Below, in pieces: positions 6,601 through 24,600 of a stretch of 64,000 nucleotides of DNA. The stretch's first letter is position 1, and each line of letters opens with the position of its first letter. Source of the stretch: Beroe forskalii (Eukaryota > Ctenophora > Nuda > Beroida > Beroidae); NCBI GenBank assembly GCA_011033025.1, contig WFMF01000013.1:62001-126000 (forward strand), read 5' to 3'. The notes under the pieces are model-generated. The model ran no database searches and was not told the origin of the DNA. It saw only the letters and a program-made list of their open reading frames with translations. The translations under genes were made by a program, and so were the position numbers.

Positions 6601-9600
6601 CACCCCTACATCTTGACACCACCTTATTTTGACACCACTCGTTTCTCACCATTCAGCAACTTCCTCCTCCTTAGTAAAGTTATTGAGACACGCTGACAGG
6701 TCAACAGGTTGAGATTGTCTTTGCTTGGCGTCTGCAACACTGCTGTCTTGCAAGGAATTATGATTAAAAGAGCAAATATTTGAACCAGTATGAAGCAGGC
6801 AGCCATAAATTTAAGGTGTTAAAATACGCAAGGTTCCTTATCACACTGATGCTAATGTAAATGAAAAACCCATTGCTAAAACCATTTTTTGCGGTCAAGT
6901 CGTCATCGTTACAGCAACTGCCACCTACATGTACTGTAAAGTAGCGACTCAAGAATTTAAAGTTTCAACGATTGGTGTTTTGAAGTAATGACGTCATCGT
7001 TACGAAACTGTCTTGAATGGTCTTGACATCATCGTCGTATTGTCTGATGAGATGTACGATTGCTGAGCTCCAGTCAACGGTCAGGTACTCACACTCACCC
7101 AGCTCTGAAATGTGTGGTAGTGGACTGTCGTTTTAATAACTTAAATCTCTTGAATCATTTTAATCACTTAACTCACTTAAGTCGCTTAATCACTTCACTG
7201 AATTAACGCATAATTATTTTATTTCTTCGCTCGGCAAGAGGAAATACCTACTGAAAGCTTGGCAAAATGAAGGCGGTACTGACTGTAATTCGCTCCATTG
7301 TTTGAATTTTGTTGCCATAAAACACAAGGATTTATTAATAACGTTTACAATTTACGTAATTTAATTACAAATCGAAACGAAAGACTTCAATATGAAATAA
7401 CCTGGGGCATCGAGTAGGGTATGACCATAACACAAGGCCCTCCATGGGCACACACAGCAATCCCTCCCATTCTCTTTCACCTTGGGAAATGTGATTGTAG
7501 AGGGCAAGACCAATGAGCAAATAGTGCTTTTTATGGCATTAGAGGTATTAGAAAATAACTCAACGACCATTATTTGAACTTGATATTCGACAAGACTTAA
7601 TTTTTCCTTCTTAATGTTGATGTTTTATTACCTTCGTAATATTGATACTCCTTAACCTTCGTGATATTGATATTTGACATGAGGTCCCCACTGAAGTCCT
7701 CATCAAAGTTGTACAACTTCTTGACGTACGTCCTGATCCGTTCCTTTACACTGACACTCTGACTCGTCTCTTCGGACCGGCGGGTGGGAACTACGAAGGG
7801 AGTGCCGAATAGGTGGACTTGTCGGTGCTGCCAACTGGGAAAATAAAGGTTCGTATGAAAGTATGAAAATGGCCCCAGGTAGTGACCCCCAATGAACCCC
7901 TGCTGACCCCCTGGTAAACCCCTATTGACCCACTACTGGACTTGTCGGTGTTGCCAACTGGGAAAGAAAAGCGGTTTTACTCCTAAAATGGGGACGAAAG
8001 CGCAAGGGGCCCGGTAAGGAATTGACGTTATAGACGCGCCAATTTTTTGAGCACGTTATAGTATTCAATTTCAAAGATTCAAACTATTGCAACATACTTT
8101 ACATGGGAAAGGCCATGATACTTATTGTGATTGATGACGCCATCATCTAATGATGACGGCATCATCTAACAACCTGAAGAAGTAGTTATCGATGGTGGCG
8201 TAGTGTCGGTTGTACACAATGACATAGTCTTCAGGGGTAGGTCCATTCCCGGGGAGCTCGTAAGCGTAGAGCGGGAAGTTGATATTCCTCAACGTCTCGT
8301 TTATGTCTGGAAATGATATGGAAATGATATGGAAATGATGAGGGAATGATAATGAATGGTAAGAAATTATGAGGAATGATGAGGAAATGATGAGGAATGC
8401 ATCAATATCTCTATAGTTGAAAAATATATCTATTTACTGAATTCTGTTAACAGTTATTAATAACGATCACATTGATGGATAATAAATAGCCCTTGATCAG
8501 TGAGAAGTAAAGTTGTAACAACAAAATAGAGTACAGTAAACAACAAAAGAACATAATAAACTCACCAATAATCCGTTTAACAGTGCTACTCTCCACCTCC
8601 ACAAAGAGAAAATGAGTAACTGCCGGTAACTTGGCAATAAGCCGCTTCTTGACATGGTTTAGCGTGTACTGGTTGTTTAGCCACAGACAGTACTGTGTTG
8701 TCTGGTTGGTGGGGTCTAGCCGCACAACGAATACCTGGCGATAGAAAACTTTTTAAAACTCAGAGTAAGAGACCACCTAGAAACTTAGAAAGAATTGACA
8801 TGTTTCATACTATATATCATCAGAATTCTCAAATTTGATTGTATAAAGTAGTGCGAAATTAGAGCGAGTAGGTATGCTAAGGGCTTACCCTAACCCTAAC
8901 CCCTTACAATTTAACCAGAGAATGAGAATATCGCTATTTCTCAGTAATGGAATGATTGTCAAGTTAAAAAAGATTTACAGTGGTTTGAAATCAAGAGATT
9001 GAAGTTTAACAAACTAACAAATAACAAATTTTTGCAAATTTCCCTTACCTCGATTATCACGTTCTTGTTTTCTGGCAGGGGCAGAGACAAACAGGAGAAA
9101 GGATCAAACCGCACTGAGGTAAAACCACACATGACACACTTTAGCGAGGACTTCAGTTGGCCGTGGAACAAGTCCACGATGATTGACCGGTTTCGGGCCA
9201 CGTGGTTGCCCCAGAATTCAGCGGCCACTTCGGCATCATCCCGGTCTCCGCTGTCCTTCATCTCAGTGTAGGGTTTGTTCGTTATTCTGAACGAAAAGTG
9301 AATTACTCTTAGAACGTTTAAACAGAACTAAGACTTGAGACTTTAAAAGTAAATTGGCACCGTTTGCCTCAGCAAAATGGAACAACACTTGGGTTGAATC
9401 TGACGTATTAATTAGATAACTAACCTATTCAAGTCCTCGTGCAGTCCATCCAACCCACCTATTCAAGTCCTCGTGCAGTCCATCCAGCAGGAAAGCCAGC
9501 ACCTCCTGCGCGTCGTGCTGCGCAAAGCCCGTGAACTGCGGTGCGAACTTAGTGATGGTCCAGCGCAGCTTGAGCGGGGCGATAGTGCGGGATGCACAGC

Positions 9601-21600: not shown

Positions 21601-24600
21601 ATGGTTTTATCCCTTCAACCTAACAACTTATATAGGTAGTTACTACTTTACTAGCTATATCCCTCTTACCAATTACATTTGTATTTGTGTACTGTGTAGT
21701 TACATGTACATCTCAAAATAGAACATCACATCGCTAACAATAGCATAGCTTCACTGGTACGGACTTATTAACAACGAAGTACTAAGTAGCAGCGATTAGC
21801 ACACTGCACACTGCACAGCAAGATCCAGAGGTGTCCACGAAAACTTACTATAACAACGCAGACTTCAACTATCACCATGCACAAGTTGATTAAAGAAAAT
21901 CGGAATGATAATCAGAATTTAAATCATTCCATGATATTTATTTGACAAGAAGTTTCACGGCAGAGTAGCGGTGATTTTCCCACAAAAATATGCGAACAAA
22001 AAGGCTCTGGCGATGTTACAAACCCTGGCTCAATTTGCTGAGGAACGTTCCTTCTGCGAGATGTGTTATTGAAAACAATGATTGAAATAAGTCGTAAGGA
22101 CCTTCTTGTAAAAGAAAGAATCAATCTGAGAGCATATCCAAATCATAATTCAGCAATATCTAAGACAGATTTTGAAATCCCCCAGATAAAGAAGTTTAAA
22201 AACAAACAATAAGTAGCTCATTTTTATAACTTAACATTCATATCTTGAAGTAATTACTTAATTAATAAACCCACCATTTACTGCGACATTATCCTCAGGA
22301 AGAGTGTGTTCAGCGTCTAACTTTAGCGAGTCTCCAACCAAGCAAAAGGACCCCAGCACCTCAGTAAATCTAGTGTCAAAGGAGTGGTGTCAAGGGAGTG
22401 GTGTCAAGGGAGTGGTGTCATTCGAGTGGTGTCAAAGGAGTGGTGTCAGAGAAGTGGTGTCAAAGGAGTGGTGTCAAGGGAGTGGTGTCAATCGAGTGGT
22501 GTCAAAGGAGTGGTGTCAGAGAAGTGGTGTCAAAGGAGTGGTGTCAAAGGAGTAGTGAGAAAGGACTGGTGTCACATGACTGGTGTCAAATGCCTGGTGT
22601 CAAAGGAGTGGTGTCAGCGGAACGAAGTGAGGTCAAGGATATGCCGTGATGTCAATTAAATGCGTAATGGTTTATTACCTCAGTAAAGTTTTCGATGTCC
22701 TCAGCATTGAGAATTCCATCACCGTTCTCATCAAACATTCCAAAGACAAACTTAGCAAAGCTGTCTTCTCCCTCTAGGATAGCAGATAATCCGATCACGA
22801 GCTCCCGACAATCGATATTACCTGATAATAGGGGCAAGCAAATAATTAGATAATTAGCAGCAGATAACTAATTAGATAATGAGCAGCAAATAACTAATTA
22901 GATAATTAATCAGCATTTGCATTAGATACTGGAATGGGCTATGTGTCGCATGTTTAGCACCTATTGTCTAATGTGTAATTAGTTTCTGCTAGGTGTTTGC
23001 ACTTTGCTGAACAAGTACGAAAATATAGTAGAAGGAACATCATCAATTCACTATTTTGATACATGATAATGACATCAGTCTTACCGTCTTTGTTCAGATC
23101 GAAGGCCATGAAGAACCTCTGGGAGAAGTCGTAGGTGTAGAGGGGGTGGAGACATTTGTGCATTGCTTCCAAGTCAAACCTCTTGGAGCGGGAGAAGAGC
23201 TTGCGAAGCTTCTGATAGTGCTTCTCTGGAGGGAGAGGAAGGTGTATTGTAACTGTAAGTAGACGGACAGAAAGTCAAAAGGCACAAAGTGACAACACAA
23301 AAGTAAACGGAAACGTAACATAAAACGCACGCACATACCGAACTATTGGGACAAACGTTAAAATAGCCAAAATCAAGAAAATTAAAGCAACTTGATAACA
23401 AAAAGCATACCGAGTGCCATGACAAACAAACAAAGCATACCGAGTGCCATGACTTGGCTCTCCGTGAAAGACGCCTGCTCAGCCAGGAACTGATGGTAGG
23501 TCTGGAAGGAGTTCTCCCGGGCACACAGGAACCCCTCACGGTCGTTATCCAGCACCCAATCAAAAACTCCTGCGAGATTATAACAAGTAAAATTACAGTA
23601 GATGATACTTGGAGGTTAATTAGATAAAAAGGGAACCGCAGAAATATGAATTAACCGTGTGAGTGATAGACTGATGGGTACATTCATTGTGTAAGTCTAA
23701 ACATAAAACAAACACAAATTACAAGTTCCTAAGATCCATATCTCACCGAGTGAGGGGGAGAACTTGTCGACCCACTTAACGAAGTGCTGGAGAGAACACT
23801 CCTCTGATACCGTGAAGAGGAAGTCAATGTGCCGGGGGAGGGGGATCTGCCAGGAGGTGAGGACTCCCACCATCTCCTCACGCGTCATCTGGGGGATAAA
23901 GGATCGTTTCCAGCTGACGACGATAATCACATGATTTTCGAAACGACGGATTTTTAACTATTCGAACTTCCGTCATGTTTGGCGAACGAAGTTCGAACTA
24001 TAGACTTTCTTGCTTTTCCTCTGTTTGCGGGAGGAGATGAAAAGCAAGACTCTCCTGGTTAAGCATTTACTGTGGAGGCGAGACAGTGTAAAATTTGTCA
24101 ATTTTTCACGCATATTTTTACTTCAATCAAAACATTATATATATTTTCAGCACATTGCAAACCTTCTTGCTATCATCGCAGAACAAGTAGAAGAGAAGTT
24201 GGAGTTTCTCATTCCTGCTTCCTCGTATAATGATAACCAGAAGACATAGCATACTGTCAAAACTCACTCCGTTACCATTCGACACTACCTTGAATATCCG
24301 TTCTGAATTGGGGTGGAGGGTGTAAGAAACGCGTGATACAATGCTTGATAAAGTGGGTGACACATGTCAATATCACATTAGTCAGCCAGCGTTTATTGGT
24401 ATACTTTAAAACTACTATATTTTTCCAACCTGAGAATTTTACTGGGAATCCCAAGAAGGCCTTTCCTACGAAGTTCTCTCTGTTAGGTAACAACAACAAC
24501 TTGTTGTATGACGACCTGCATGAAAAAGGTTATTCTGATCACGATTAGCGACTTAAAGTGACATATGAGGTGACAAGTTACGTTAAATTTCTCTTTTCAC

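What the first reader, a model, noticed from the sequence alone, without database searches (positions are those of the whole stretch)
7657..23569. Exon edges with their splice sites are repeatedly duplicated into adjacent introns
In USP32 at least seven splice sites have extra copies in tandem or nearby: acceptors of exons 12, 15, 18 and 22, and donors of exons 5, 12, 14 and 18. The copies carry exon bases as well as the GT or AG. Minisatellites also start right at several acceptors (exons 9, 17 and 21). This looks systematic: either short tandem duplication is favoured at splice junctions, or redundant splice sites persist because selection ignores or uses them.
Basis: seen in the sequence. 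Interest (0 to 1): 0.75.

Follow-up and report, generated by a model that had tools for sequence, protein, structure and literature searches.

The report
Splice-edge copies from ordinary tandem duplication
Several exon edges in this animal's USP32 gene do have extra copies in the next intron, but in the DNA examined exon edges are copied no more often than other intronic spots, so this looks like ordinary local DNA duplication that is weeded out of exons and tolerated outside them.

Summary
The copies are real. In USP32 (minus strand, 30 exons in my model) eight exon edges have a nearby copy with exon bases and the GT or AG: acceptors 12, 14, 17, 21 and donors 5, 12, 17, 21.

The claim that this is systematic fails. 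With one scoring rule for every position, 7 of 58 USP32 edges lie in a local duplication, against 17.0% of 15,751 positions in its own introns. In a 303 kb sample of the genome, 20 of 334 other predicted edges do, against 10.0% of 17,345 intron positions: ratio 0.60, bootstrap 95% 0.35-0.96. The rate falls from intron to exon with no peak at the junction. A one-sided test and masking of minisatellites give no clear excess either.

Best explanation: neutral tandem duplication and minisatellite growth in a repeat-rich locus, purged from exons and tolerated on the intron side. Side result: introns 7 and 24 have direct repeats at both ends (11/11 and 18/19 bp), a known footprint of intron gain; their age could not be tested.

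The parts
3699..24905 (-). USP32 gene, 30 exons in my model (1-21, 21b, 21c, 22-28); some edges uncertain (donor of 21c, acceptors of 22 and 25), and an exon may be missing in intron 12 or 13
   Evidence: hand placement and frames; Pfam EF-hand, DUSP, UCH, sub-threshold USP32_N
23402..23453 (-). donor of exon 5 and its tandem copy, 30-bp unit, equal splice score (5.3 and 5.3); use of the copy would add 10 codons in frame
   Evidence: the gene finder itself chose the copy
20138..20253 (-). donor of exon 12 and its tandem copy, 58-bp unit, 96% matches
   Evidence: TRF
20322..20412 (-). acceptor of exon 12 and its tandem copy, 47-bp unit; a third copy of the acceptor motif lies near 20545-20575
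   Evidence: TRF; third copy read by eye from the sequence
11895..12237 (-). acceptor of exon 14 with two more copies (133 and 222 bp away) inside an 89-bp higher-order repeat that also holds an 11-bp minisatellite
   Evidence: TRF
9604..9682 (-). acceptor of exon 17 and its tandem copy, 41-bp unit
   Evidence: TRF
9420..9486 (-). donor of exon 17 and its tandem copy, 34-bp unit; homology is mostly on the exon side
   Evidence: sequence; missed by the two-sided score
7813..7966 (-). acceptor of exon 21 and a copy 123 bp upstream, with a degenerate minisatellite between them; reading from the copy meets a stop
7625..7680 (-). donor of exon 21 and its tandem copy, 25-bp unit
22360..22678 (-). 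intron 7: identical 11-bp direct repeat TTTACTGAGGT at donor and acceptor; 244 of its 319 bp are a 14-bp minisatellite (22373-22616)
   Evidence: TRF
5083..5323 (-). intron 24 region: 19-bp direct repeat (18 of 19 identical) at the donor (5323-5305) and near the start of exon 25 (5101-5083)
8309..8399 (-). minisatellite ending 2 bp from the acceptor of exon 20
   Evidence: TRF
9977..10122 (-). 40-bp-unit array ending 12 bp from the acceptor of exon 16
   Evidence: TRF
21412..21464 (-). 11-bp-unit array ending 5 bp from the acceptor of exon 9
   Evidence: TRF

Best explanation
The copies are the ordinary product of local tandem duplication (replication slippage or error-prone repair) in a repeat-rich locus. 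Duplications arise without regard to exon edges. Those inside exons are removed by selection; those in introns stay. One that spans an edge can stay if splicing goes on using one of the two sites, because the spare copy is then cut out with the intron. This gives a fall in duplication from intron through edge to exon, as seen. Edges draw the eye because exon sequence is easy to recognise. Shown: the rates and their profile, in USP32 and in a sample. Inferred: neutrality, the slippage or repair step, and that the extra site is mostly not used.
For: USP32: 7 of 58 edges versus 17.0% of 15,751 intron positions and 0.4% of 1,866 exon-interior positions. Sample: 20 of 334 edges versus 10.0% of 17,345 intron positions, ratio 0.60 (0.35-0.96); against each locus's own intron rate 19 of 325 edges seen and 31.1 expected, obs/exp 0.61 (0.31-1.07). 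Predicted exon interiors 3.0% of 13,715, noncoding 13.2% of 8,591. Arrays masked: 12 of 330 edges versus 5.3% of 17,170 intron positions. One-sided test, exon arm 10 or more: sample donors 6 of 150 and acceptors 4 of 151 versus 5.7% and 5.8% of 14,610. No peak at offset 0. Tandem-repeat coverage: 24% of the window, 14% of six 10-kb stretches at round coordinates, 7.8% of all non-window loci together.
Against: Arrays masked, USP32 edges (6 of 44) are above its introns (8.2% of 13,715), P 0.15; USP32 donors in the one-sided test 5 of 29 versus 10.0%, P 0.16. Ten bases inside the intron at USP32 acceptors 8 of 23 are duplicated against the gene's intron rate of 17.0%, P 0.03 uncorrected; the sample shows 9 of 167 there. 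Arrays lie within 15 bp of, or overlap, edges more often than uniform placement wholly inside introns predicts: acceptors 9 of 27, expected 2.0, simulated P 0.0000; donors 6 of 27, expected 2.0, P 0.0105; outside USP32 alone 2 of 9 and 3 of 9, expected 1.0 each. That null cannot overlap an edge while the count can. Copies keep similar splice scores, which neutral copies need not. Controls rest on a home-made gene finder and 303 kb of 216 Mb.
Confidence: 0.8

Rival explanations
1. Short tandem duplication is mutationally favoured at splice junctions, for example through pyrimidine tracts, R-loops or the AGGT motif.
For: Eight edge copies in one gene; arrays abut several acceptors, above a uniform null; in USP32, 10 to 50 bases before acceptors, 7-8 of 23 positions are duplicated.
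Against: No excess of edges over introns in USP32 or in the sample; the sample's edge rate is below its intron rate (binomial P 0.006 if positions were independent); no peak at the junction.
Confidence: 0.07
2. The copies are kept because they serve as redundant or regulated alternative splice sites.
For: Copy and original have similar splice scores at the eight sites, with donor 12 the weakest match, 5.6 and 3.9; the donor 5 copy is in frame without a stop and would add 10 residues.
Against: Only 3 of the 8 sites (acceptors 14 and 21, donor 5) have a copy at a distance divisible by three, and reading from the acceptor 21 copy meets a stop. GT/AG retention is not clearly above intron controls (18 of 23 versus 1,314 of 2,104, P 0.087). 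No RNA data.
Confidence: 0.08
3. Some of these introns are recent gains made by tandem duplication or by repair of a staggered break, and the duplicated edges are the scars.
For: Intron 7 has 11 of 11 identical bases at both ends in exact register; about 0.01 of 97 introns is expected to score 11. Intron 24 has 18 of 19 (score 16.5); none of 1,500 random donor-acceptor pairings reached 13. In all, 5 of 97 introns score 7.5 or more, 0.66 expected. Daphnia new introns carry 4-12 bp repeats of this kind (PMC4202315, sections 19 and 27 read).
Against: The 7.5 threshold was chosen after seeing the data; at 6 it is 7 versus 3.6 expected. The acceptor of intron 24 is uncertain, and with the acceptor in my model it does not rank in the registered test. 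In Drosophila 25% of gained and 26% of conserved introns are flanked by repeats of 5 bp or more (PMC3443670, passage read). It would explain at most these introns, not the eight copied edges.
Confidence: 0.12

Closest known systems
Tandem duplication across an intron-exon boundary (potato RdRp case, PMC4974935; abstract and Introduction read)
   Same: A short tandem duplication crosses an intron-exon boundary and gives two sets of splice signals.
   Different: There a new intron arose, shown against relatives; here the spare copy lies within an existing intron, and no relatives or transcripts are at hand.
[quoted passage not shown] Drosophila near intron pairs PMC2891723, abstract read)
   Same: Copies of a sequence around AG|GT at both ends of an intron (intron 7).
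   Different: In register, homology stops after 11 bp and most of the intron is a minisatellite; age untested.
New introns from staggered double-strand breaks in Daphnia pulex (PMC4202315; abstract and sections 19 and 27 read)
   Same: [quoted passage not shown] internal direct repeats in the intron.
   Different: Daphnia gains were found by comparing populations; here there is one assembly.
Intronic minisatellites and two-copy tandem repeats (general knowledge)
   Same: Outside the window, 154 arrays have a median unit of 19 bp and about 45% have under 2.5 copies.
   Different: Little, apart from several that end within 15 bp of an acceptor in this gene.

Membership tests
   (sample, not whole genome)
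Neutral local tandem duplication | frequency high in introns, low in exons, intermediate at edges | tested here: met
   profile; rates
Neutral local tandem duplication | copies polymorphic or absent in relatives without effect on transcripts | not testable with these tools
   a search with window 8000-10200 found only the window itself over its full length (40 of 136 candidates scored); the tool holds no relatives of this genome
Functional alternative splice sites | copy retains splice consensus | tested here: met
   all eight sites; donor 12 copy weaker (3.9 versus 5.6)
Functional alternative splice sites | use of the copy seen in RNA | not testable with these tools
   no transcript data
[quoted passage not shown]
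   intron 7 has ACTGAG|GT at both ends; the intron 24 repeat holds AAGT and its acceptor is uncertain
[quoted passage not shown]
   intron 7: in register, homology stops after 11 bp and 244 of 319 bp are minisatellite; an old duplication could have decayed
Staggered-break new intron (Daphnia type) | exon terminal bases repeated at the opposite intron end, 4-12 bp | tested here: met
   intron 7, 11 bp
Staggered-break new intron (Daphnia type) | intron absent in relatives or other alleles | not testable with these tools
   no relatives held

The most novel reading that the evidence does not exclude
USP32 in this animal is being actively remodelled at its splice junctions: several duplicated edges are live alternative sites of near-equal strength, and introns 7 and 24 (perhaps also 21 and 21c) are young introns made by tandem duplication or staggered-break repair, so that one gene shows successive stages from edge duplication to intron birth.
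Probability: 0.12. Interest if true: 0.5.

Novelty: already known. Interest (0 to 1): 0.18.

Why it matters
Had edges been hotspots, it would have offered a mutational route to alternative splicing and intron gain. The control shows how one repeat-rich gene can look systematic when introns themselves carry duplications at 10-17% of positions. It also gives a simple test (score edges and intron positions by the same rule) for similar claims.

Tried and rejected
Ungapped self-alignment found 5 of 47 edges versus 12.9% of 15,182 intron positions; replaced by an anchored gapped score because it missed copies with small indels. The script printed the exon table and then failed; the counts it was to make were made. 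A uniform-placement test of arrays in introns gave low P values, but its null cannot overlap edges while its count can, so I rely on the position profile. GT/AG retention in copies as a sign of selection: no clear effect. Allelic comparison: a search with 2,201 bp of the gene matched over its full length only at the window itself; the other 39 places listed match one short stretch. The pattern GGTAAGTNNNNNNAGGTAAGT had no match in the genome. Paper searches for 'minisatellite', 'intron', 'splice site duplication' and for tandem repeats at exon-intron boundaries listed nothing.

Limits: exon edges outside USP32 come from a small self-trained gene finder. In USP32, 28 of its 29 high-confidence edges agree with the hand model, the miss being the duplicated donor of exon 5, but the window was in the training set. 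74 sequences were loaded and 58 used (window included): I left out 10 as overlapping others or as apparent twins, and the script dropped 6 more for shared 20-mers. Loci came from family hits (UCH, PH), hits to a dispersed repeat, six 10-kb stretches and three gene-rich stretches, so they are not a random sample. Control positions are capped at 400 per locus and strand and are not independent; the bootstrap is by locus and strand.
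Full report
What was checked. The window lies in a 216 Mb genome assembly (contig C170). I placed exons of the gene on the minus strand by reading frame and splice consensus, guided by recall of the human protein. The translation has EF-hands, a DUSP domain, a sub-threshold USP32_N match and a UCH protease domain, and the protease part matches solved ubiquitin-specific proteases, best USP4, 15 and 11, so the name USP32 is fair. My model has 30 exons; a few edges are uncertain. Exon 14 shows an apparent one-base frame break, so the two sides were checked apart.

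The copies. Eight edges have a nearby copy. Acceptors: 12 (47 bp away), 14 (133 and 222), 17 (41), 21 (123). Donors: 5 (30), 12 (58), 17 (34), 21 (25). A GT or AG is present in each copy, and splice scores of copy and original are close: 10.0 and 10.4 at acceptor 21, 5.3 and 5.3 at donor 5, with the largest drop at donor 12, 3.9 and 5.6. Three of the eight sites have a copy at a distance divisible by three: acceptor 14 at 222, acceptor 21 at 123, donor 5 at 30. From the acceptor 21 copy the frame meets a stop; donor 5 extends in frame by ten codons.

Is it more than chance? Against block-shuffled sequence, yes (14 of 9,000 shuffled positions reach the cut-off). But the right comparison is with other intron positions, because this DNA is full of local duplications. 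I scored positions by one rule: extend left and right from the position and from a point 12-400 bp away, allow small gaps, require at least 4 on each side, and call a sum of 14 or more a duplication. In USP32, 7 of 58 edges pass (donor 17 fails the two-sided rule), against 17.0% of 15,751 intron positions and 0.4% of 1,866 positions inside exons. The chance of 7 or more at the intron rate is 0.88. Without the two long introns 12 and 13 the intron rate is 18.5%.

Elsewhere in the genome. I trained a small gene finder on 58 sequences (303 kb, window included) and kept 195 high-confidence exons. In USP32, 28 of its 29 high-confidence edges agree with the hand model. Outside USP32, 20 of 334 edges pass, against 10.0% of 17,345 intron positions: ratio 0.60, bootstrap range by locus and strand 0.35 to 0.96. 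Compared with each locus's own introns, 19 of 325 edges are seen and 31.1 expected, obs/exp 0.61, range 0.31 to 1.07. So edges are not enriched, and may be depleted. With arrays of 2.8 or more copies masked, 12 of 330 edges pass versus 5.3% of 17,170 intron positions. Asking only for an exon-side match plus the GT or AG gives 6 of 150 donors and 4 of 151 acceptors at score 10, against 5.7% and 5.8% of 14,610 intron positions treated the same way.

Shape of the profile. In the sample the rate is 5-9% in the 120 intron bases next to edges, 6% at the junction and 1-5% in the first 100 exon bases. In USP32 it is 5-8 of 23 in the 120 bases before acceptors, 4 of 23 at the junction, and 0-1 of 23 from 20 to 100 bases into the exon; at donors 3 of 23 at the junction and 2-7 of 23 in the intron. 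There is no peak at the edge. USP32 differs from the sample mainly in having more duplication in its introns, in line with the window's tandem-repeat coverage of 24%, against 14% in six 10-kb stretches and 7.8% in all non-window loci.

Results against this reading. With arrays masked, USP32 edges (6 of 44) are somewhat above its introns (8.2%; P 0.15), and USP32 donors are above introns in the one-sided test (5 of 29 versus 10.0%; P 0.16). Arrays lie close to edges more often than uniform placement inside introns predicts: in USP32 acceptors 7 of 18, expected 1.0; over all introns acceptors 9 of 27 and donors 6 of 27, expected 2.0 each. That null is unfair to arrays that overlap an edge. The position test shows 8 of 23 at 10 bases before USP32 acceptors (P 0.03 uncorrected) and 9 of 167 in the sample, which is below the sample's intron rate. 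So there may be a weak local effect in this gene. An exon-anchored pair should also stay recognisable longer than a wholly intronic pair, since one copy is under selection (inference); that would raise, not lower, the rate at edges.

A side result. Two introns have direct repeats at their two ends. Intron 7 has TTTACTGAG|GT at both, in exact register; about 0.01 of 97 introns is expected to score as high. Intron 24 has an 18-of-19 match between the end of exon 24 and a stretch near the start of exon 25; none of 1,500 random pairings reached score 13, and it scores 16.5. Its acceptor is uncertain: one in-frame choice puts the copy inside exon 25, another leaves it at the intron's end (my reading). 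Introns 21 and 21c have weaker ones. Over 97 introns, 5 score 7.5 or more with 0.66 expected, but 7 with 3.6 expected at a threshold of 6. In Daphnia, 33 direct repeats of 4-12 bp of this kind were found at new introns (PMC4202315, section 27), while in Drosophila gained and conserved introns are flanked about equally often (PMC3443670, passage). Without relatives I cannot say whether these introns are new.

Verdict. Local tandem duplication is common in this DNA, it is rare in exons, and exon edges fall in between. Known kind, low interest, with a modest open question about introns 7 and 24. On re-checking I lowered confidence in the best explanation slightly (0.82 to 0.80) and raised the hotspot rival (0.06 to 0.07), because shuffled positions do reach the cut-off now and then and the array test against uniform placement is strong on its face.

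Noticed in passing
11776-11909 (-): Exon 14 has an apparent one-base frame break; assembly error or real, not resolved.
   Followed up: partly
18042-19596 (+): A sugar-transporter-like gene (Pfam Sugar_tr on the 18607-19596 frame) lies on the opposite strand inside USP32 intron 12; it is split over two overlapping open frames.
   Followed up: partly
22373-22616, 6286-6640, 50024-50491: Minisatellites sharing a GTGTCA core at three places. A related pattern, AGTGGTGTCANNNNNAGTGGTGTCA, has 268 matches in the genome (reversed control pattern 0); the places listed lie on 25 contigs, none in this window, whose arrays have other spacings. It looks like a minisatellite family dispersed over unlinked loci.
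   Followed up: partly
32144-37440 and 54196-60692: Two large arrays of one 133-bp unit (best alignment 92% over 4.1 kb), each with a nearby 850-bp segment 97.9% identical between the two places: a segmental duplication, with about 1.5 kb more between array and segment in the second copy.
   Followed up: partly
8741-8853: A short dispersed repeat in intron 18: 39 further places listed (40 of 136 candidates scored).
   Followed up: no
27452-27667 (-) and 62466-62906 (-): Two Snf7-family (CHMP-like) genes in one window; the first ORF scores below the Pfam cut-off, the second well above.
   Followed up: no
1248-2918: A 19-bp minisatellite of about 88 copies, 93% matches.
   Followed up: no
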